Below are positions 712 through 9,827 of a stretch of 10,060 bases of DNA, piece by piece (positions within the stretch are counted from its first letter, which is position 1; each line of letters starts with the position of its first letter). The stretch comes from Bondarzewia mesenterica (Eukaryota > Basidiomycota > Agaricomycetes > Russulales > Bondarzewiaceae), in NCBI GenBank assembly GCA_004802705.1, contig SGPL01000839.1, forward strand, positions 558 to 10,617, given 5' to 3'. The translations under genes and the position numbers were made by a program. Below the pieces are notes generated by a model, which worked only from the letters and a program-made list of their open reading frames with translations, was not told the DNA's origin and ran no database searches.

Positions 712-1077
712 CTAATTTCCTCCTCAATAATACACAGCTATAAACAGGAATAACCAAACTACGTCTACAAAATGCCAATAAAGAATAGCTGCTTCATGTC
801 CTTGATGATGAGTATCTGTTAATTGATAATTTACTAATCTTATAAACCCTACTAATATAAATATTGTACCTATGATCACATGCAACCCATGTAGACCAGT
901 TGCTGCATAAAACACTGTCCCATATACAGAATCTGTTATTGTGAAACCTGCTTCTGAATATTCATAATATTGTAGTGCTGTAAAAATTACAGCAAAAACA
1001 ATAGTTAATAATGTTCCTAATATAGCACCTCTTCTATCTCCTTGTATTAAAGCATGGTGACCATATGTTACAAATGC
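712..1077 (-). CDS. cox3: Cytochrome c oxidase subunit 3, exon 3 (C-terminal part)
   Basis: This exon encodes residues 153-273 of COX3, a multi-pass inner-membrane core subunit of respiratory complex IV. Family landmarks are visible: an exon start reading AFVTYGHHALIQGDRRGA, the ITDSVYGTVFYAATGLHGLHV block, and the H-E-A..YWHFVDVVWLFLF C-terminal helix. Under the standard code it would stop at TGA (724-726). In code 4 that codon is Trp and the protein ends YYWGGN followed by TAG at 712-714, close to the usual COX3 tail. The 5' boundary follows from joining to exon 2, giving SSG-AFVTYGHHAL. The preceding intron ends in G (complement of 1078), as group I introns do. Confidence 0.95.
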
Positions 1078-1383
1078 CAAATCTCCAGCTATATATAGTA
1101 TAATAAATTAAAAAAATTAAAAAANTTAAACATCTGAATATATAACTCTTGTACTTTATATTAATTTATATTTTTCAAATTAAAACTTAATTAGTTAAAG
1201 TAGCATTGCTATTAATATTGAAAATTAATATAAAACCTTTGAAAAAGAAAAATTATTCTCTCGCTACGCTAGCTAATAAATTTTGAAAAGTTAGCTCTCT
1301 CTTGCGTAGCAGCTTTTTTTATTTTTGTCGCTAGCGCTACGCTGGCTCCGCCTTTGTGGCTCTGCCTTTTGCTTTAGCAAAAA

Positions 1384-2106: not shown

Positions 2107-2799
2107 TTAAATCAAATTAAGTTTATAATACATAGTCGGATGAAAATGAGGTTTCACTATTTTTATTAAATCATCCAAACTAGATTTTGGAATATATAAA
2201 CTATATTGATTCACTATTCCTGTTTTATGTATAGAAGTATTAAGAGAGTACTTATTTTCGAGTAAAGAGGCTAAATATTGAACATCTTTAAGTGTAAAAC
2301 CATTAGTACAAAATTTTAATCCTCTATTTTTATATAGACTACCATCATCCATTATCCAAATAGCTAAAGCTAAAGGTGATAAATAAGAATCTATAATTTT
2401 AGGAATTATTTTTCGTTTATTAGGATAAAATTCATCGTATATTCAATTAAATGAAGCATAAGTATAAGTTCTAAATCGATAATAATAAGTAATTTTACCT
2501 TCTATTCCTTTTCTAGTTTGCATTATAGGAAAATTTTCTTTTGCATAACCGAGAGAACTAATAATTTGATGTAACCATAATAAATATTCTCCATTAATTT
2601 TTGCTTGATAAAAAGCAAAACGTGAACCATTTCCATCTTTTTCCATAGTACCATCTCCTAGTAATGATCCTATTATTATACTTAATATATCATAATTATG
2701 AGGACCTATTCGTTTTAGAGAGGGAACTCTGGGACAGTTTAAAGGTAATAAACTACTGCTTAATAAAAATAAATCAGATAAATCACATTTCTGGCACAC
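2107..2799 (-). CDS. Intron-encoded LAGLIDADG homing endonuclease (LAGLIDADG_2 type), fused to cox3 exon 2
   Basis: This frame continues without interruption from cox3 exon 2 for 230 residues to TAA (2107-2109). It has one in-frame TGA (2443-2445), read as Trp in code 4. Two LAGLIDADG helices are visible: [16 protein letters not shown] at about intron residues 36-51, and [14 protein letters not shown] about 110 residues later. Their acidic residues (G-D-G and D-D-G) would be the metal ligands. The SLLGDG...WIMDDG pairing is characteristic of the LAGLIDADG_2 family. Homing endonucleases of this type cut intronless cox3 alleles to spread the intron, and some also act as maturases. Expression is presumably by translating unspliced or partly spliced cox3 RNA and processing the fusion. 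The frame is intact, unlike the endonuclease in the first intron, so it may still be functional. Confidence 0.88.
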
Positions 2800-3027
2800 A
2801 CCAGATGATAATAATAAAATAGTATTTAGTAAAGGTATAGCAAAAGGGTCTAAAGGAGTTATACCTTGTGGAGGCCAGCAACCACCCAACTCAATGGCTG
2901 GAGATAGACTAGAATGGAAAAAAGCTCAGAATACACCTAAGAAAGCAAATACTTCACTAATAATGAATAATATTATTCCTAGAGTTAAACCTTTTTGAAC
3001 TTGGATAGTATGGTTACCTAAATAAGT
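2800..3027 (-). CDS. cox3: Cytochrome c oxidase subunit 3, exon 2
   Basis: This exon of exactly 76 codons encodes residues 77-152 of COX3. Recognisable blocks are [54 protein letters not shown] and [16 protein letters not shown], the central transmembrane helices of the subunit. The codon for W in GVFWAFF is TGA (2926-2928), again showing code 4. The 5' boundary is set by joining ...ITEG to TYLGNHT, the preceding intron ending in G at 3028. The 3' boundary is at GGT (2800-2802), just before sequence that stops resembling COX3 (VCQKCDL). The neighbouring intron frame continues directly from this exon. Confidence 0.95.
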
Positions 3028-4278
3028 CAATTTTAGGCACGTATGTAATATAATGACATACTTAATTACCCATACGAATTATTCAATGTATTACTACATT
3101 GTTTGGACTATATATTAATTGATAGGTAGTAAAGGCTACGTATCAACTCTTCGCGTGTAGTCTCTGAGGATCCTACTAAGATAATTCTTAATCTTTTGGT
3201 TTCCTGCTGATTGTCCTAATATATTTATTATATACTTAGGATTTTCCAGCATATAGTAAAGTTTTAAGAGAGCACTTATAATAGGGTTTATCTTATAAAA
3301 TTTAGAATAATAATAATAAGAATTTAAATATCATAGTTCAAGTGAATACGTTTACTATTCATGTTAGAATGAATTAGCTTTATTTCAATTATACCTTTCT
3401 CTGTAAGATGTTCTTTAGATAGAATCATATAATATACTTCTCTCAATCTTTAAAATTTTGATTCTTGACCCCTAATAAAGGATAAATATTAAAATAATCA
3501 ACTAGAATTTTAACTTTATCTATAGCACTAACATAAACTGATAATATGTTATAATCAGATTTGATTTTTATATGTTAACAAATTACATGAAAGAGATTGA
3601 GCAATATTTTCCATTATACTTTCCATAGACAAGGAAGTTTTTTTATCTATAAGACGTTGATCTAATCTGAATTTTAAACTAATATTAGAACTAACAGATT
3701 TTTTATTATTACCTTTAGATTTACTTTCCACAATTTTTACACCAAAACTACCATCAGCTTCAGCAAACCCTGTAAATCAACTATTTGATAATATATTAGA
3801 TTCATCTATATTACTTTTTGGTATAGCTAAATTATATTTTTGATTCATAAATTACAATCAAATCATTTAAGGATTTATTCTTAGGTGTTCTTAACTTATT
3901 GTGTACAATATTTATAAATGTTATAATTCCTTGTTTATCTCCTATAATATATCTTATAATACTTTGGTTGGATAATTGAAAACGACCTATTCCTCCTAAT
4001 CTTTGTTGAATATACACATATAAAGCTAAATCATTTACATGTGCAGTAAAGACGATTCTAGGATTAAGTATTCTATTTAAGCTAGTGTTGCCTAAGAAAG
4101 GTAAACTAAGATGACCATCACCTTCCAATAAACCAGCTAAATAATAACCAAATTGATCATCATTCAACGTACTTTGAACATTATTAATTTTTATTATTTC
4201 TTTTATCTTTTCTGGACTAATCGCTCTAACTATACCCAGAATATTATTTGACAATACCCAATTAAAATTTGTTCTTTT
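3028..4278 (-). mobile_element. Group I intron in cox3 (first intron)
   Basis: This 1251-base intron separates cox3 exons 1 and 2, with exon 1 ending in T and the intron ending in G. The conserved core is clear on the minus strand near the 3' end. A P/Q-type segment contains AATCAGCAGGAAACC (about 3199-3213), the R segment is GATCCTCAGAGACTACACG (about 3155-3173), and the S segment is ATATAGTCC (3105-3113). GACT and AGTC in R and S would pair as P7. Most of the 5' part (3324-4278) is a LAGLIDADG endonuclease frame continuous with exon 1. The last 300 bases carry the ribozyme core. No GC clusters have invaded this intron, in contrast to the second one. Confidence 0.9.
3324..4278 (-). pseudogene. 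Intron-encoded double-motif LAGLIDADG endonuclease/maturase with three frame breaks
   Basis: The coding signal spans about 317 residues starting directly after cox3 exon 1 and ending NYDI-TAA (3324-3326). LAGLIDADG motif 1 is GYYLAGLLEGDGHLSLP and motif 2 is WFTGFAEADGSFGVKI. The C-terminal signature SKEHLTEKGIIEIKLIHSNM and the YPLLGVKN..FKDW block fit the LAGLIDADG_1 monomeric family, which includes I-AniI-like maturases. The reading frame breaks three times: one extra base in a 5-base run at 3837-3841, one extra base in a 5-base run at 3565-3569, and one missing base near 3438-3445. Both sides of each break stay conserved. Two breaks lie in homopolymers, as does one in cox3 itself, so sequencing error is as likely as decay. 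If the breaks are real, the endonuclease is dead and the intron is no longer mobile by its own means. Confidence 0.82.
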
Positions 4279-4505
4279 ACCCTCTGTTATAATATCTCGG
4301 AACCAAAAAAGCCATAGAAAAAGACTGTTAAAGTGAAACCTAAACTTATTAAAGAACTCCCATAAGAATAACCTTGCATGTAAACTACAGCTCCTACAGT
4401 TAAACTTAATAAGGAAAAACTAACTAGTATAGGTCAAGGAGATGGATCAACTAAATGATAAGGAAATGATTGATATTGATGTCTATTAATAATAATAGTG
4501 TTCAT
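4279..4505 (-). CDS. cox3: Cytochrome c oxidase subunit 3, exon 1 (one-base frame break)
   Basis: The exon starts at ATG (4503-4505), giving MNTIIINRHQYQSFPYHLVD, then PSPWPILVSFSLLSLTVGAV and VYMQGYSYGSS, the normal COX3 N-terminus. The W in PSPW is TGA (4434-4436). The frame breaks near residue 67. The expected FFWFRDIITEG is present, but only one frame over, after a run of six T (plus-strand A, 4305-4310). A seven-base run would give a 76-codon exon and the known motif, so the break is most simply a homopolymer undercall. Exon 1 ends at GGT (4279-4281), after which AAARAAC-type intron sequence begins. The start codon lies 3 bases beyond the edge of the large direct repeat, which forms the cox3 leader. 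Confidence 0.92.
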
Positions 4506-4508
4506 TAA

Positions 4509-4885
4509 GTAATATTTGTTCAAGTTATTAATACTAAAGTTTATTAATTTAATTATTTTTTAATCGTCACTTATTAAAGGTAATTATATAATAATATTAA
4601 ATCTTACATTACATAAATGTTCTATTAATAAATTTATATAACTGAAAAAATAAAATTAATGTATACAAATAGAGATTCGTAAGTTTAGTTGCTTGGATGA
4701 TAATTTTTAATTTTATATTGTTTATAATTATCTAAAATTATATTACCTAGTTACTTTTAACTTTTGTTATTAATTTTAAACCCCTCCCCCCGCGCCATAG
4801 GGTATTCCACCGCCCCCCCGCTTGCGAAGCCAGAGGTTGCTTCGCTAGGGAGAGGCGGGCGGAGCCAGCCAAAGGCGTTTTATTT
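4509..4885. repeat. Large direct repeat, copy 1 (5' leader of cox3)
   Basis: This 377-bp copy matches 7300-7675 in the same orientation. I count about seven substitutions and four small indels by eye. All are in the AT-rich part; roughly the last 110 bases, including the GC cluster at 4779-4880, are identical. In cox3 sense the repeat runs from the GC cluster to 3 bases before the ATG, so it is the whole visible cox3 leader. It may carry a promoter or translational activator site, but no promoter consensus can be assigned. The GC part contains a GCGAAGC/GCTTCGC stem and a half-copy of the GGTATTCCACCGC hairpin. Confidence 0.93.
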
Positions 4886-5842
4886 TTATATAAAATTAAT
4901 TTTTTTAATACAGTTTATTTTATTTTGTTTTTTGTTTTAAGACTATTTAATAAAAAAAGAAATTAATTTTTATTATTTCTCTTAAATTACTAGCTATAAA
5001 TTATTATTATCGACATTTTCCTCCTCACCCTAGACAAATATTTTGTGATAGGATACCTAAGATAATATAGATATAAATAAATTAAATGGTAGTGTGGCTC
5101 TTATTTTTTTTTGTTTAAACAAAAAAAAATTAAACAAAACAAATAAATGTATATCATTAAATAATTAACTAGAATTATTATAAGTTCAAAATATGATTTC
5201 ATAAATAACACTTAAATTAATAAATTACTTTTGTCGCCTCGCCTATGGCGGGGCGGGTTTAATTCTACAACTATATTACATAAAGGTATCCACTTTTATA
5301 ATTAGATATTATTGTTTACAGTGGAGATATAAAAAACTAAATAGAGAGAAATAAATAATAAAATAATCATATAATCAAACTATTTTAACTCTAAATATAT
5401 GCGGAGCCCTTGTCATAAATAAAACCTTTTCTTCGGATCGGAGCGACACATTGCCGGAGGCCTTGTTATATTATAAATAAAAGCATATAAAAGCATTTAC
5501 AAGTGAAAGGGGGTAACTTTATATAATTCATAATATTTTTATCGTCCCCTAATTTTGGTTTATCTGTCTGTTATTTTTTTTGTTTATTTTATTTTGTTTG
5601 TTTTTAAACAAAAAAAANNACGCCTTTGGCGCTAGAAGCAAAAAACAAAATTAGCCCCTTAATTTTTTTTTGCTATAGCATAGCAAAAAAAATAACTAAT
5701 AAATTTTTATATATAAAAAATTTATAAGGGCGGCTCCTTCGGGGAGCTGCGCGGTTTAAAAACACAAAATAAGGCAGCGTTTAGCAACAAAAATTAGAGC
5801 CAAAGGCGAGGCGGAGCCAAAAAAAAGGCGAGGCGCTTGTTT
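4886..5842. other. Spacer between orf483 and the cox3 leader, no gene
   Basis: I found no tRNA and no conserved protein frame in this 957-base AT-rich stretch. It contains GC patches at about 5232-5260 (CGCCTCGCC..GGCGGGGCGGG, hairpin-forming), 5400-5465 and 5610-5840. It also holds the second copy of the dispersed repeat shared with 355-440, with two Ns at 5618-5619, and a long AT stem near 5697-5727. A short GGAGGAAAATG-like string on the minus strand near 5020-5030 is not followed by a recognisable protein. In gene sense it is the 3' flank of orf483. Confidence 0.6.
5571..5654. repeat. Dispersed direct repeat, copy B (partner at 355-440)
   Basis: It is near-identical to 355-440 in the flanks but has a shorter centre: GGCG in place of GTCCGAAGGAG between CGCCTTT/CGCCTTTG and CTAGAAGC. 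Two Ns (5618-5619) lie at the end of its A run. The conserved flanks with a variable core fit gain or loss of the internal hairpin. Confidence 0.75.
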
Positions 5843-7293
5843 TTATAAAATAAAAAAATATATATATAAAAATAATAAACAAGAATGAAATAATATAACT
5901 CTTATATACACTTGTATAAACCAAAATTTACCTGGACTTGAAACTTGACTATTACTCTTTATTCTATTTACCCAATTCAATAAAAATTTAGGTAAGTTTT
6001 TAGGGATAGTAAAATAATTACTGTCTATTAAATAAATTACGAATAAATAAAATTCTAGAATATGATATAACCACCATCCTATAAACCATACTAATACTGA
6101 ATATTTTATCCAAAAAGATAAAGAAACCATTGAAAAGAAATCCATTATATAATCATATATGGCTGCGACGGGTGAAAAAGAATTAATATTACTAAATATA
6201 AAATATATAAAAATTATACATAATATAGCTATTATAAATACACTTACCCATCTAAATCTATTCTTATTTTTATTATTACTATCCTTTTTAATAAACATAT
6301 TTAATGAAGTCGCAGTACTTGTACCACTACCAAGTAATAAAGTAGATAAAGGTGTAAAAGCTTTATGATAATGATGCATATATAAAAAATAAACAGATAA
6401 ACAAGGTAAAGTGATTTTATTAAAATTCCTAATCCTCTCGCGGCAGCGTTTTCGATCACTCAATATTTTGTGATATTCTGTGACATTTATTTTATTAGGA
6501 ATTGGAGGAAACATAACTCTAGAATAAGTAGATAATAATCCTCTATAGGCTAATACAGGAGATATTAAACAAGTAGCTGACACTAATATATCTATCTTTT
6601 TTTGATTTTCCATGAAAAATTCTAAAGTTCTTGTACTATTTTCTAATCCTCTATCTAATTTTGACTTAAAATCCTGTAATTCTCCTACATTATTTTTTAA
6701 ACTAAACACTTCTTGGCTTAATTCTTCCACTTTTCCATCAGATTCTTTGAATTTATTTAGTAGTGTATTTGTAAAATCATCATCATTTTCTATTCTAGAT
6801 AACTGTGCTTTAAAATTAGGATCCTTAGATAATTCAATTATACTATCAATTATACCTTTGTCTTCCAATAAATTTCTAATTTCCGTTTTTTTTTTTTCTC
6901 ACTCATTATACTTAAAACTTCTACTATTTTATCTAAATAAACAACATCACCATTATTTTTAGAAGATACTTTACCGTAGTTAGGAAATGCTTCTTCAAAT
7001 GAACTCATTTCATCATTTGAAACCAAATCTAACGGTGTTTTATTATTATTGATAATTAACTGTTTTAACTCTTCTACACCATCTTTAGCTAATTCTGGTT
7101 CAAAATTATTTCATTCCTTCGCTTCTGTTTTATCCTCATCTGCGCCGCCTTTAATCTCTAAATTTGTTATTCTGTTTTCCAATTCTAAATTATTATTATC
7201 GTTTTCAATATATAATATATTAGAATTATGAAAAAATCTATAATATAAAGAGTTATTTTGTTTGTTAAGTAAGCTATTTCCGAAATTTGTCAT
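5843..7293 (-). CDS. Unidentified multi-pass membrane protein, about 483 residues (orf483)
   Basis: I do not recognise this protein. Reading starts at ATG 7291-7293 (MTNFGNSLLNKQNNSLYYRF), uses one TGA as Trp (7111-7113) and ends FFIL-TAA at 5843. It is split by one frame break at a run of twelve A (plus T, 6886-6897). A run of 13 or 10 would join SEKKK to TEIRNLLEDKG in one frame. Residues 1-230 are hydrophilic, Asn/Glu/Lys-rich and partly coiled-coil-like (about 182-230). Hydrophobic segments lie at about 235-255, 293-325, 349-368, 385-423 and 461-482, so an integral membrane protein is likely. The frame stays open for 1.4 kb of AT-rich DNA and uses TGA-Trp, which argues that it is coding. 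It starts 6 bases from a copy of the cox3 leader and would share its expression signals. It lacks LAGLIDADG, GIY-YIG, polymerase and ribosomal-protein motifs. Confidence 0.72.
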
Positions 7294-7299
7294 ATGTTT

Positions 7300-7675
7300 G
7301 TAATTTGTTTAAGTTATTAATACTAAAGTTTATTAATTTAATTATTTTTTAATCGCCACCTATTAAAGGTAATTATATAAAAATATTAAATATTACATTA
7401 CATAATGTTCTATTAATAAATTTATATAACTGAAAAAATAAAATTAATGATATACAAATAGAGATTCGTAAGTTTAGTTGCTTGGATGATAATTTTTAAT
7501 TTTATATTGTTTATAATTATATAAAATTATATTACCTAGTTACTTTTAACTTTTTGTTATTCATTTTAAACCCCTCCCCCCGCGCCATAGGGTATTCCAC
7601 CGCCCCCCCGCTTGCGAAGCCAGAGGTTGCTTCGCTAGGGAGAGGCGGGCGGAGCCAGCCAAAGGCGTTTTATTT
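7300..7675. repeat. Large direct repeat, copy 2 (5' leader of orf483)
   Basis: This 376-bp counterpart of 4509-4885 ends 6 bases before the orf483 start codon. The distance between equivalent points of the two copies is about 2.79 kb. Similarity stops sharply at both sides: the coding side diverges at the start codon, and the upstream side diverges directly after the GC cluster (AAAGGCGTTTTATTT). The GC cluster at 7569-7675 is identical to that of copy 1, implying a recent duplication or ongoing gene conversion. Confidence 0.93.
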
Positions 7676-7885
7676 AAAATTAGATTTTACATAATTAGAG
7701 TTTAAATAATCAGGATCTAATATAAGAAATTATTTTGTCCGAAGGACCGAAGGCTTTGTTTGTTTTTATGCCTCCCCGCCTTACTAAACAAAATAATTTG
7801 ATTATTAGATAAAAAAGGGGGTAAAATATAAATGATTATATTATGTAGATAAATAAGCGGCGAAGCCGCTTAAATATGTAATTTT
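7676..7885. other. Spacer between tRNA-Tyr and orf483 leader
   Basis: This is AT-rich DNA with a GC patch at about 7738-7780 (GTCCGAAGGACCGAAGG, containing the short inverted repeat TCCGAAGGA) and the hairpin at 7855-7871. No gene was seen. Confidence 0.6.
7855..7871. repeat. Perfect 7-bp hairpin just downstream of tRNA-Tyr
   Basis: AAGCGGCGAAGCCGCTT is a 7-bp stem with a GAA loop. In transcription sense it lies 15 bases after the tRNA 3' end, where it could affect 3' processing. It may equally be another GC-cluster hairpin, since GGCGAAGCC recurs elsewhere. Confidence 0.55.
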
Positions 7886-7969
7886 TGAGCAGTAAAGGAA
7901 TCGAACCTTTTACGGTGTAAAACCAATTCTTTTACAGAGAACCACCATTACCAATCGGATCACCTGCCC
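7886..7969 (-). tRNA. trnY: tRNA-Tyr (anticodon GUA), long variable arm
   Basis: This 84-base cloverleaf on the minus strand begins GGGCAGGTGATCC and ends ACTGCTCA. The anticodon stem is GTTCT/AGAAT (one G-U) around the loop CTGTAAA, giving GUA for Tyr. A variable arm with stem GGT/ACC follows, as expected for mitochondrial tRNA-Tyr of the class II type. The T arm is AAAGG-TTCGATT-CCTTT. The D arm is ATC/GGT with GG in its loop. The acceptor pairs GGGCAGG with ACTGCTC, including one G-U and a G-A mismatch at the innermost pair. It lies between cox1 and orf483 on the same strand and probably punctuates the same transcript. Confidence 0.92.
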
Positions 7970-8280
7970 GGATTCAGAAGGTTATTTTTTTAAGTATAAA
8001 TAATTGAATAAATTAAAAACCTTTTTACAGCAAAAAAAACATTATTCTTCTTTTAAAAATATAATAAAACCTAAAAATAAAAACCGCGGCTGCTACGCAA
8101 GAAAAAACTCTTTTATTTATTTCCCCCCCGCCTCTGGCGAAGCAAGCTCCTTCGGACACAGGCGTTTTTTTGTTTAAACAAACAAAATAAGGAGCGACTA
8201 AATTTTTATATATAAAAATTAATATATAAAAGGCGACAGCTTATGTCAATACAAGGCAAGTAAAAAACGCCTGTGTTTGT

Positions 8281-8298
8281 TGCGGTAGCGCATCCGCC
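8281..8298 (-). repeat. 18-bp GC word, copy 2 of 3 (inverted)
   Basis: TGCGGTAGCGCATCCGCC is the exact reverse complement of 1384-1401 and 8706-8723. With its flanks it forms inverted arms of roughly 27 bases with 8700-8726, bounding about 390 bases of intergenic DNA. Confidence 0.75.
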
Positions 8299-8537
8299 TT
8301 TTTTTTTATAAAACACACGCCTTTGTGGCTACGCAAGAAGGAGCTAGAGGAAAGGGGGCTAGGGGGTTAATAAAAATATATTAAAAATAAAATATTAATG
8401 CCGACAAGTCAATTGCATTAATAAACTTTAAAAAATTATAACTACTGTTTTTTTCTTAGGGCAAGCAGAAACTTTTAGTAAGGTAAGCCGGCTAGGTTTA
8501 ATCACAAAAACTAAGCATAAAAAAAAAAGAATACAAA

Positions 8538-8568
8538 GCTACGCAGCTACGCAACTACGCAGCTACGA
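8538..8568 (+). repeat. 8-bp tandem repeat, four units
   Basis: GCTACGCA, GCTACGCA, ACTACGCA and GCTACGA lie head to tail. The unit is the arm sequence of the dispersed hairpins (GCTACGCAAG), so this looks like local expansion by slippage of a GC-cluster arm. Confidence 0.8.
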
Positions 8569-8705
8569 AAAAACAACGGCTTATAAAATTTGAGCCTTAT
8601 AAATTTTTATATATAAAAATTTATTAGCGCAAAATTTTATTAGACCGAGAAAGTGTAATTTATTATTATTAAATGAGTTATCCTAATTTGTTTTTATCAA
8701 AAAAA

Positions 8706-8723
8706 GGCGGATGCGCTACCGCA
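8706..8723 (+). repeat. 18-bp GC word, copy 3 of 3
   Basis: Exact copy of 1384-1401, here preceded by a run of A and followed by ACAAAAAGGCGG. It lies in the cox1 3' flank. Confidence 0.75.
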
Positions 8724-8816
8724 ACAAAAAGGCGGTGTTTTTTTCAAAAACGCCCCCGCTTGCGAAGCCAGTGTGTTATTATTAACCTAAGAGGATTTAG
8801 GGGGGTGTATATAGGG

Positions 8817-8856
8817 TCCCAAAATTATAAATTTAAATCTAAAATTTTGTGGGGGT
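8817..8856. other. Possible hairpin in the cox1 3' flank
   Basis: TCCCAAAATT and AATTTTGTGGGGG can pair, with a two-base bulge, around an AT-rich loop about 45-85 bases after the cox1 stop codon in transcription sense. It could protect or define the mRNA 3' end. The evidence is only the pairing potential. Confidence 0.3.
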
Positions 8857-8901
8857 ATTATAAAGTTTAAAATTTTAATTATGGAAGAAAAGAGCCGATA
8901 A

Positions 8902-9207
<306 letters not shown>

Positions 9208-9827
9208 TTATTTCTAGATTCCTAATCTTACGACTAGGTTCAGACTATATCATCAATAAACTAAAAAAAAGTTTATTGTCGGGAGCTCGTGTGAGGTTTA
9301 TTGCTAGTACGGCTCACCTCTTAGTCGTTGAACGTTTCTTCCGCCGGGGGCGACTAAACTAATTTAGTTGTACTGTGAAAGACTTCGCTGCAAATTGACT
9401 CTTATTTGTCCCGCCTTTGGCTTATTTTTGTTTTTTTTAAACAAACAAAAAAAAAAAATTAGGAGACAGCTAGAGTTATCCTTGCAATTCACCCGATTCT
9501 CTATAGTAAAAATTAATTACTATAGGGGCATTGAGTTAAACCAGTTATTTTTTAACGTTAATTTATTTTTGTTCGACGGAATAGTAACCCTTTAAATGGA
9601 AGACCGTTATTTATATACTTGCTAAGTGTATCTTTTCCCATTTTAAATTGTTTAGCACAATTTACAGTTGATTTATCTCCAACTAGAGACAGATCTTCAG
9701 CATTATAAACGTACACTAATTTAGTTAATTTAGCTATTGTCTCCGCTGTTTTTTCAACTCCAAATTGTGGATTGTTAGGCCCAGACTTATTTCTTTTCTG
9801 CATTTCTATAAATTCAGGAGATTTAGG

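What the first reader, a model, noticed from the sequence alone, without database searches (positions are those of the whole stretch)
4509..7675. cox3 and an unknown gene share the same duplicated 5' leader
A 377/376-bp direct repeat (4509-4885 and 7300-7675) ends 3 bases before the cox3 ATG and 6 bases before the orf483 ATG. Similarity stops at the start codons on one side and directly after an identical GC cluster on the other. This means either that orf483 captured the cox3 leader with its expression signals, or that the 2.79-kb unit (orf483 plus one repeat) inserted at the 5' end of cox3 and regenerated the leader. Some fungal mitochondrial mobile elements (Allomyces, Rhizophagus) are known to duplicate host gene ends on insertion, but those duplicate C-termini. 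A duplicated 5' leader would be a different variant. Recombination between the copies could excise orf483 as a circle.
Basis: partly seen in the sequence, partly recalled or inferred. Interest (0 to 1): 0.82.

Follow-up and report, generated by a model that had tools for sequence, protein, structure and literature searches.

The report
Unknown mitochondrial gene with copied cox3 leader
In what looks like mushroom-type fungal mitochondrial DNA, a gene of unknown function sits directly behind a copy of the leader of the respiratory gene cox3, so it may be switched on by cox3's own signals; a similar arrangement is already in print for another fungal genus.

Summary
Confirmed. A 376/377-bp direct repeat lies before cox3 and before an unknown ORF ("orf483"): 364 of 374 aligned columns are identical, and no other full copy was found in the 33-Mb assembly. 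Similarity runs from a GC cluster, identical in both, to within a few bases of both start codons. The ORF belongs to a family of predicted membrane proteins with four other members of 218 aa or more found; a decayed paralogue lacks the leader. The ORF starts about where its relatives start and has no cox3 codons, so the copy replaces its 5' flank. My reading: leader capture by recombination at a GC cluster, giving the ORF cox3's expression signals. The duplication is shown; direction, expression and function are inferred; excision as a circle is possible but unsupported. The idea is in print: PMC10234125 reports 5' ends of core genes, cox3 included, upstream of cox2 and intergenic ORFs in Heterobasidion and proposes that they maintain ORF expression. 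Different here is a leader-only copy ending at the start codon. Another contig of the assembly shows the known atp6 3'-end duplication around a homing-endonuclease ORF.

The parts
7300..7675 (-). leader copy directly upstream of the unknown ORF
   Evidence: 364 of 374 columns identical to the cox3 copy; two full copies found in the assembly
4509..4885 (-). leader copy directly upstream of cox3
7564..7675 (-). stretch with the GC cluster at the 5' border of the ORF-side copy, identical to the cox3-side copy over 112 columns
   Evidence: related cluster pieces at C840, C556, C523
4774..4885 (-). stretch with the GC cluster at the 5' border of the cox3-side copy
6850..7293 (-). unknown ORF, first open frame (147 aa, table 4); residues after the 12-T run are probably out of frame
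   Evidence: 31% to P0003 over residues 12-135, E 1e-08; to P0001 only E 0.007
5843..6868 (-). unknown ORF, second open frame (341 aa): long helical part, then hydrophobic segments
   Evidence: P0001 37% over 100%, P0002 51% over 62%; hydropathy
4886..5842 (.). spacer between the ORF and the cox3-side leader, with dispersed GC-cluster and AT-rich repeats
   Evidence: 81 matches in the assembly, its own included, mostly to a few short stretches of the query
4287..4505 (-). cox3 exon 1 (end approximate)
   Evidence: PF00510 E 8.9e-08
2107..3030 (-). cox3 middle exon running in frame into an intronic LAGLIDADG_2 ORF (limits approximate)
   Evidence: PF00510 and PF03161 in one frame
3549..4254 (-). 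two LAGLIDADG_1 ORF pieces in the first cox3 intron
   Evidence: PF00961 in both
712..1080 (-). cox3 last exon (start approximate)
   Evidence: PF00510 E 5.5e-52
7886..7969 (-). tRNA-Tyr (GTA) upstream of the ORF-side leader
   Evidence: ARAGORN

Best explanation
A mitochondrial gene of a conserved but uncharacterised membrane-protein family has acquired a copy of the cox3 5' leader, from a GC cluster down to the start codon, and is probably transcribed, processed and translated with cox3's own signals. SHOWN: two real, slightly diverged copies; placement right before two unrelated coding regions; membership of the ORF in a protein family; absence of the leader at its decayed paralogue. INFERRED: the copy was made by recombination (gene conversion, break-induced copying, or single-crossover integration of a circle that had already captured the leader), with one exchange in or at the GC cluster and the other near the start codon, and it was kept because it lets the ORF be expressed. 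In baker's yeast the cox3 leader is where the cox3-specific translational activators Pet494, Pet54 and Pet122 act (recalled), so the ORF could be coupled to cox3 synthesis.
For: The repeat ends at both start codons and at one GC cluster. The ORF's first piece is collinear with P0003 from residue 12 and shows no cox3 sequence, so the swap stops at the edge of the coding sequence. Relatives with long open frames exist: P0001 477 aa, P0003 462 aa, P0004 395 aa, P0002 218 aa. The paralogue on C268 lacks the leader and its frame is broken where GC-rich stretches lie. In 14 mt-like stretches held, the AT-rich part of the leader has no match beyond the two copies that is better than those of 3 shuffled controls. 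Published analogue: 5' partial core genes, cox3 included, upstream of cox2 and of intergenic ORFs in Heterobasidion, read there as possible expression elements (PMC10234125).
Against: No RNA data. Direction of copying is not shown, as no relative with a single leader could be fetched (viral contigs and genome contigs one search found none). The ORF frame is broken in the assembly, so it may be a pseudogene. The two leader RNAs fold better than most shuffles (z -4.8, 0 of 100 as good; z -3.8, 1 of 100 as good) but into partly different structures, and the GC cluster's share was not separated, so this neither supports nor refutes a function. Third-position GC gives no sign of a foreign origin. 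No promoter or activator site is known for this fungus.
Confidence: 0.55

Rival explanations
1. The 2.79-kb unit (one leader plus the ORF plus spacer) is a mobile insertion at the 5' end of cox3 that brought its own leader copy, the 5' counterpart of the Allomyces/Rhizophagus mobile ORFs; the leader now in front of cox3 is then the newcomer, and the unit could leave as a circle.
For: The direct repeats bracket the unit and cox3 keeps a complete leader. A contig of the same assembly has a mobile-ORF-like arrangement at atp6: two copies of the atp6 3' end, 81% alike, around a LAGLIDADG ORF. Linear mt plasmids capture host pieces, including the first 48 amino acids' worth of nad2 (PMC9925561), and DNA-polymerase-B and RNA-polymerase matches lie on mt-like contigs of this assembly. 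Some short imperfect AT-rich inverted pairs lie on either side of the ORF and its leader, for example 5094-5127/8165-8198, 34 nt, 85%.
Against: No endonuclease or polymerase domain in either ORF piece; those inverted pairs lie inside or outside the unit, not at its ends, and look like the dispersed repeats of this mtDNA; the copies are 97% alike; no contig holds an excised junction or empty site.
Confidence: 0.2
2. A partial cDNA of the cox3 leader was reverse transcribed and inserted before the ORF, as proposed by others for duplicated mt gene ends.
For: The duplicated piece looks like a 5' untranslated region. Himmelstrand et al. suggest cDNA copies for partial genes and a related route for GC palindromes (PMC10234125).
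Against: No group II maturase domain (PF08388) match in the assembly, 0 of 1 genome; other reverse transcriptases were not sought. A cDNA end at the start codon is unexplained.
Confidence: 0.1
3. The duplication is ordinary repeat-driven rearrangement of a repeat-rich mtDNA with no effect on the ORF, which is a decaying plasmid remnant.
For: Spacer queries give 81 and 123 matches in the assembly, their own included, mostly short dispersed stretches. DNA polymerase pieces are split over frames. The ORF frame is broken and so is its paralogue.
Against: The junction falls at the ORF's start codon; relatives are long and open; among the repeats of 120 bp or more in the mt-like sequence held, this is the only one that puts a core-gene leader before an ORF.
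Confidence: 0.13
4. Assembly artefact.
For: The assembly contains Ns, broken frames in a core gene and contig ends where mt-like and nuclear-looking sequence meet.
Against: The two copies differ at 10 places and have different flanks inside one contig.
Confidence: 0.02

Closest known systems
Partial 5' core-gene duplications (PA_nad2, PA_cox3, PA_atp8) upstream of cox2 and intergenic ORFs in Heterobasidion annosum s.l. mitogenomes (PMC10234125; seen: abstract, sections 10 and 11, part 1 of 2 of the discussion, and passages)
   Same: Copy of the 5' region of a core gene, cox3 among them, placed just upstream of unknown intergenic ORFs, nearly all with membrane segments; mtDNA with optional GC repeats; proposed to keep ORFs expressed.
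   Different: Those are described as 5' ends of partial genes; here the copy is non-coding leader and stops at the start codon. Here the copy lies 2.79 kb from its source in direct orientation, with a large GC cluster at its border. The Heterobasidion 13-bp GC palindrome has 0 exact matches in the 14 stretches held.
Mobile ORFs with duplicated C-termini (Allomyces atp6; Glomus atp6, atp9, cox2, nad3; PMC3630166, passages)
   Same: A host gene end is duplicated around an inserted ORF and the gene stays complete.
   Different: 3' coding end, endonuclease ORF, divergent copy; here 5' leader, no endonuclease domain, 97% identity. A case of the known type lies at atp6 on contig C655.
Introns with N-terminal duplications in Tremella fuciformis (PMC7315562, abstract and passages)
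   Same: Mobile DNA carrying a copy of part of the host gene in a basidiomycete mtDNA.
   Different: Coding duplications inside introns.
Agrocybe aegerita nad4 repeats beside an integrated linear plasmid (known here only from a reference title and a mention in other papers)
   Same: Host gene sequence duplicated beside plasmid DNA.
   Different: Inverted repeats with a whole gene; not so here.
Plant cytoplasmic-male-sterility ORFs with captured 5' regions of atp6 or atp9 (recalled; two searches showed only a listing and passages of PMC11312923, which did not describe promoter capture)
   Same: Unknown ORF with membrane segments placed behind the expression region of a respiratory gene.
   Different: No phenotype known here; the ORF is a conserved family, not a chimera of host genes.

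Membership tests
Heterobasidion-type 5' partial-gene duplication upstream of an ORF | copy of the 5' region of a core gene directly upstream of an intergenic ORF | tested here: met
   the copy ends 6 to 10 bases before the ORF ATG
Heterobasidion-type 5' partial-gene duplication upstream of an ORF | copy includes 5' coding sequence of the core gene | tested here: not met
   similarity stops at the start codons
Allomyces/Rhizophagus mobile ORF | homing endonuclease encoded in the insert | tested here: not met
   no LAGLIDADG or GIY-YIG hit in either ORF piece at E <= 1, nor in P0001, P0003, P0004 at E <= 0.1
Allomyces/Rhizophagus mobile ORF | duplicated 3' coding end with foreign-level divergence | tested here: not met
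   5' non-coding leader, 364 of 374 columns identical
Integrated linear mitochondrial plasmid | terminal inverted repeats around the insert | tested here: not met
   none at the unit's ends among the pairs listed (25 of 35, 25 of 42); short imperfect AT-rich pairs elsewhere, such as 5094-5127/8165-8198
Integrated linear mitochondrial plasmid | DNA or RNA polymerase gene in the insert | tested here: not met
   none in the ORF pieces tested, nor by whole-assembly searches on this contig; matches only on C422, C655 and C225, C203
Uncharacterised ORF family (P0001-P0004) | sequence similarity over the N-terminal and the membrane part | tested here: met
   second piece; first piece: E 1e-08 to P0003, 0.007 to P0001
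Leader capture that drives expression | transcripts of the ORF begin in, or need, the captured leader | not testable with these tools
   needs RNA

The most novel reading that the evidence does not exclude
The ORF is a selfish, plasmid-derived mitochondrial membrane-protein gene that survives by wearing the complete cox3 leader, and so is made under the control of cox3's gene-specific translation factors; the 376-bp direct repeats let the ORF flip out as a 2.79-kb circle and back, leaving cox3 intact either way.
Probability: 0.2. Interest if true: 0.75.

Novelty: new variant of a known kind. Interest (0 to 1): 0.45.

Why it matters
How unknown ORFs persist in fungal mtDNA is an open question. 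A leader-only duplication separates expression signals from coding sequence, so the idea put forward for Heterobasidion (duplicated 5' ends keep integrated ORFs expressed; PMC10234125) can be tested by mapping RNA ends in two nearly identical leaders that differ at 10 marker positions. It would also connect fungal mitochondrial ORFs with the promoter capture known from plant male-sterility genes (recalled).

Tried and rejected
Plasmid and phage record collections: no match. IMG/VR scans with the second ORF piece, P0001, P0003, P0004, cox3 exon 1 and a leader word: no relative; GTDB contigs with P0001: none. So there is no outgroup for the leader and no polarity. Heterobasidion as the source: unlikely, as its 13-bp GC palindrome has 0 exact matches in the 14 stretches held. 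The C426 piece as a third copy: rejected as a probable mis-joined read. C489 as an empty site: its mt part stops with the contig, at window 7829, before reaching the repeat. A duplication of the cox3 3' flank behind the ORF: the shared stretches are short dispersed repeats. Upstream ORFs in the leader: 13 aa in the cox3 copy and 18 aa in the ORF copy, beginning alike, not pursued. AlphaFold model of P0001: mean pLDDT 48.9, pTM 0.24, too poor for a fold search, none made. PDB profile search: 3 weak hits, best E 0.036, a designed scaffold and fibrinogen chains. Coiled coil: no predictor was run; the term rests on the low-confidence long helix and on weak hits to such proteins. Rfam at gathering thresholds: only a group I intron at 9221-9548. 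Paper searches: 10 answered; among the papers I opened, PMC10234125 was the only direct prior art. No search phrase was answered with a leader-only case, but wording varies and the library lacks most subscription journals.
Full report
What the window is. The window is bases 558-10617 of contig C802 in a 33.1-Mb assembly of 844 contigs. Gene content is fungal mitochondrial: cox3 in three coding pieces with LAGLIDADG intron ORFs, tRNA-Tyr, a group I intron, and TGA codons inside frames read as tryptophan. An exon at 9186-8902 looks like the end of cox1 by a PRRIPDYPD stretch (recalled; Pfam gave no COX1 hit for it). A gene with several short introns on contig C426 (by eye) and the literature on similar ORFs suggest a basidiomycete (inference). 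mtDNA is scattered over many contigs.

The observation. On the minus strand the order is tRNA-Tyr, ORF-side leader (7675-7300), unknown ORF (7293-5843), spacer (5842-4886), cox3-side leader (4885-4509), cox3 (from 4505). The two leaders match in 364 of 374 alignment columns, with 7 substitutions and 3 single-base indels. The first 112 columns, holding a GC cluster, have no difference; all 10 differences lie in the AT-rich remainder, which under even spread would happen about 3% of the time (my arithmetic), so this is only weak evidence for conversion or constraint in the cluster. The sequence upstream of one copy and that upstream of the other share only short repeats, the longest listed being 35 columns. 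A genome search gives 6 matches: the two copies, three short GC-cluster pieces, and a 91-bp piece at the end of C426 followed by Ns, which by eye carries cox3-copy variants and looks mis-joined. Against 14 held stretches of mt-like contigs, the AT-rich leader part matches nothing but the two copies better than 3 shuffled controls do; the best other real match has E 3e-09, the best control matches E 9e-12, 4e-13 and 9e-09. The copies therefore exist, are two as far as found, and are not an assembly echo.

The ORF. In this assembly it is two overlapping frames of 147 and 341 aa, with a run of 12 T between the readings. The core gene atp6 is likewise split over two frames on C655, with a run of 7 T in their overlap, so I regard the break as a probable assembly error, not proven. 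The second piece matches P0001 (477 aa, 37%) and P0002 (218 aa, 51% over 62%); a profile search added P0003 (462 aa), P0004 (395 aa) and P0005, a 110-aa fragment 97% identical to part of P0001. P0001, P0003, P0004 and P0005 come from JGI data and P0002 from two other sources; contexts were not available. The first piece matches P0003 (31% over residues 12-135, E 1e-08) but P0001 only weakly (E 0.007). Shared features by eye are an FH(S/N)(S/C) motif near the N-terminus, an S(S/T)FEE stretch, a long helical part and C-terminal hydrophobic segments. No Pfam family passes its cut-off in the ORF pieces or in P0001, P0003 and P0004. P0004's source name, an antitoxin component, has no support from Pfam. 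A second member lies at the AT-rich end of contig C268 (24% identity to the second piece, E 2e-08), split over frames, with GC-rich stretches at the breaks, and without the leader. Third-position GC of the ORF pieces (0.18, 0.15) is within the range of the cox3, cox1, cox2 and atp6 pieces (0.11-0.20), so composition does not mark it as foreign.

How it most likely arose and works. The copied piece has the limits of an expression region: it ends at cox3's start codon and at the start codon of an ORF whose N-terminus is collinear with a relative's. I infer that the ORF acquired the leader by recombination, with one exchange in or beside the GC cluster, and that it was kept because it gives the ORF cox3's transcription, processing or translation signals. 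Whether capture happened in place or on a free molecule that then integrated by one crossover cannot be told; both give this map. A comparison within the assembly is at hand: on C655, atp6 is followed by a LAGLIDADG ORF and a second atp6 3' end, 81% alike over 216 columns, the mobile-ORF anatomy. The cox3 case differs from it in the end duplicated, in the lack of an endonuclease and in the identity of the copies.

Plasmid background. A search for B-type DNA polymerase gave 4 matches, 3 on C422 and 1 on C655. One for phage-type RNA polymerase gave 5: 1 on C225, which also carries the mtDNA's repeats, and 4 on C203, perhaps the nuclear gene (inference). Linear-plasmid genes thus probably reached this mtDNA, which makes a plasmid origin of the ORF plausible but not shown. 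Himmelstrand et al. 2014 argue that such ORFs in Agaricomycetes may come from plasmids (PMC4201751; sections 8 and 12 and passages). Nieuwenhuis et al. [quoted passage not shown] abstract, results and discussion).

What is known. The strongest prior art is PMC10234125: in Heterobasidion the 5' ends of nad2, cox3 and atp8 and of two ORFs are found upstream of cox2 and of intergenic ORFs, and the authors suggest that these may help to maintain expression of the ORFs. The present case supports that idea in an apparently different fungus and sharpens it, because only the non-coding leader is duplicated.

Limits. No RNA, no reads, no relative with an ancestral state. About 65 kb in four contigs plus ten partial loci were compared, with matches of 120 bp or more listed; shorter or more diverged duplications would be missed, and about 6 kb of what was compared reads N.

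Noticed in passing
G000 contig C655 (L023) 4672-4886 and 6074-6287: The atp6 3' end is present twice, 81% alike, around a broken LAGLIDADG ORF: the known Allomyces/Rhizophagus-type arrangement.
   Followed up: yes
G000 contig C268, last ~1.2 kb (L024): A decayed paralogue of the unknown ORF, broken over frames with GC-rich stretches at the breaks, on mt-like DNA at the end of a contig whose other held parts near this end look nuclear.
   Followed up: partly
window 6850-7293 and P0001, P0003, P0004: The family has an N-terminal (R/K)-(Y/F/L)-F-H-(S/N)-(S/C) motif that resembles cleavage sites of imported mitochondrial proteins (recalled), odd for a gene inside the organelle.
   Followed up: no
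window about 6430-6455: A small GC-rich stretch in the ORF coincides with a 3-residue in-frame insertion relative to its relatives, perhaps a GC-cluster piece tolerated in frame.
   Followed up: no
window 4886-5842 and 7676-8901, and many contigs: Dispersed GC-cluster and AT-rich repeats: 81 and 123 matches, own included, from these two queries; related cluster pieces also near the ends of C840 and C556, which are otherwise GC-richer and nuclear-looking.
   Followed up: partly
ends of contigs C426, C489 and C268: Nuclear-looking contigs end in mt-like sequence at Ns or a homopolymer: mis-joins or nuclear insertions of mtDNA.
   Followed up: partly
G000 contig C422, 17297-17545 against 9881-9634: A 249-column inverted repeat at 84% lies in the N-terminal parts of two similar hydrophobic ORFs of unknown function on a contig that also carries DNA polymerase pieces.
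   Followed up: no
near the start of C802 (window about 21-591) and the end of C746 (L030): 579 columns at 97%: C746 may continue the mtDNA downstream of cox3, though C523 also matches C746 over 627 columns, so a repeat is not excluded.
   Followed up: no
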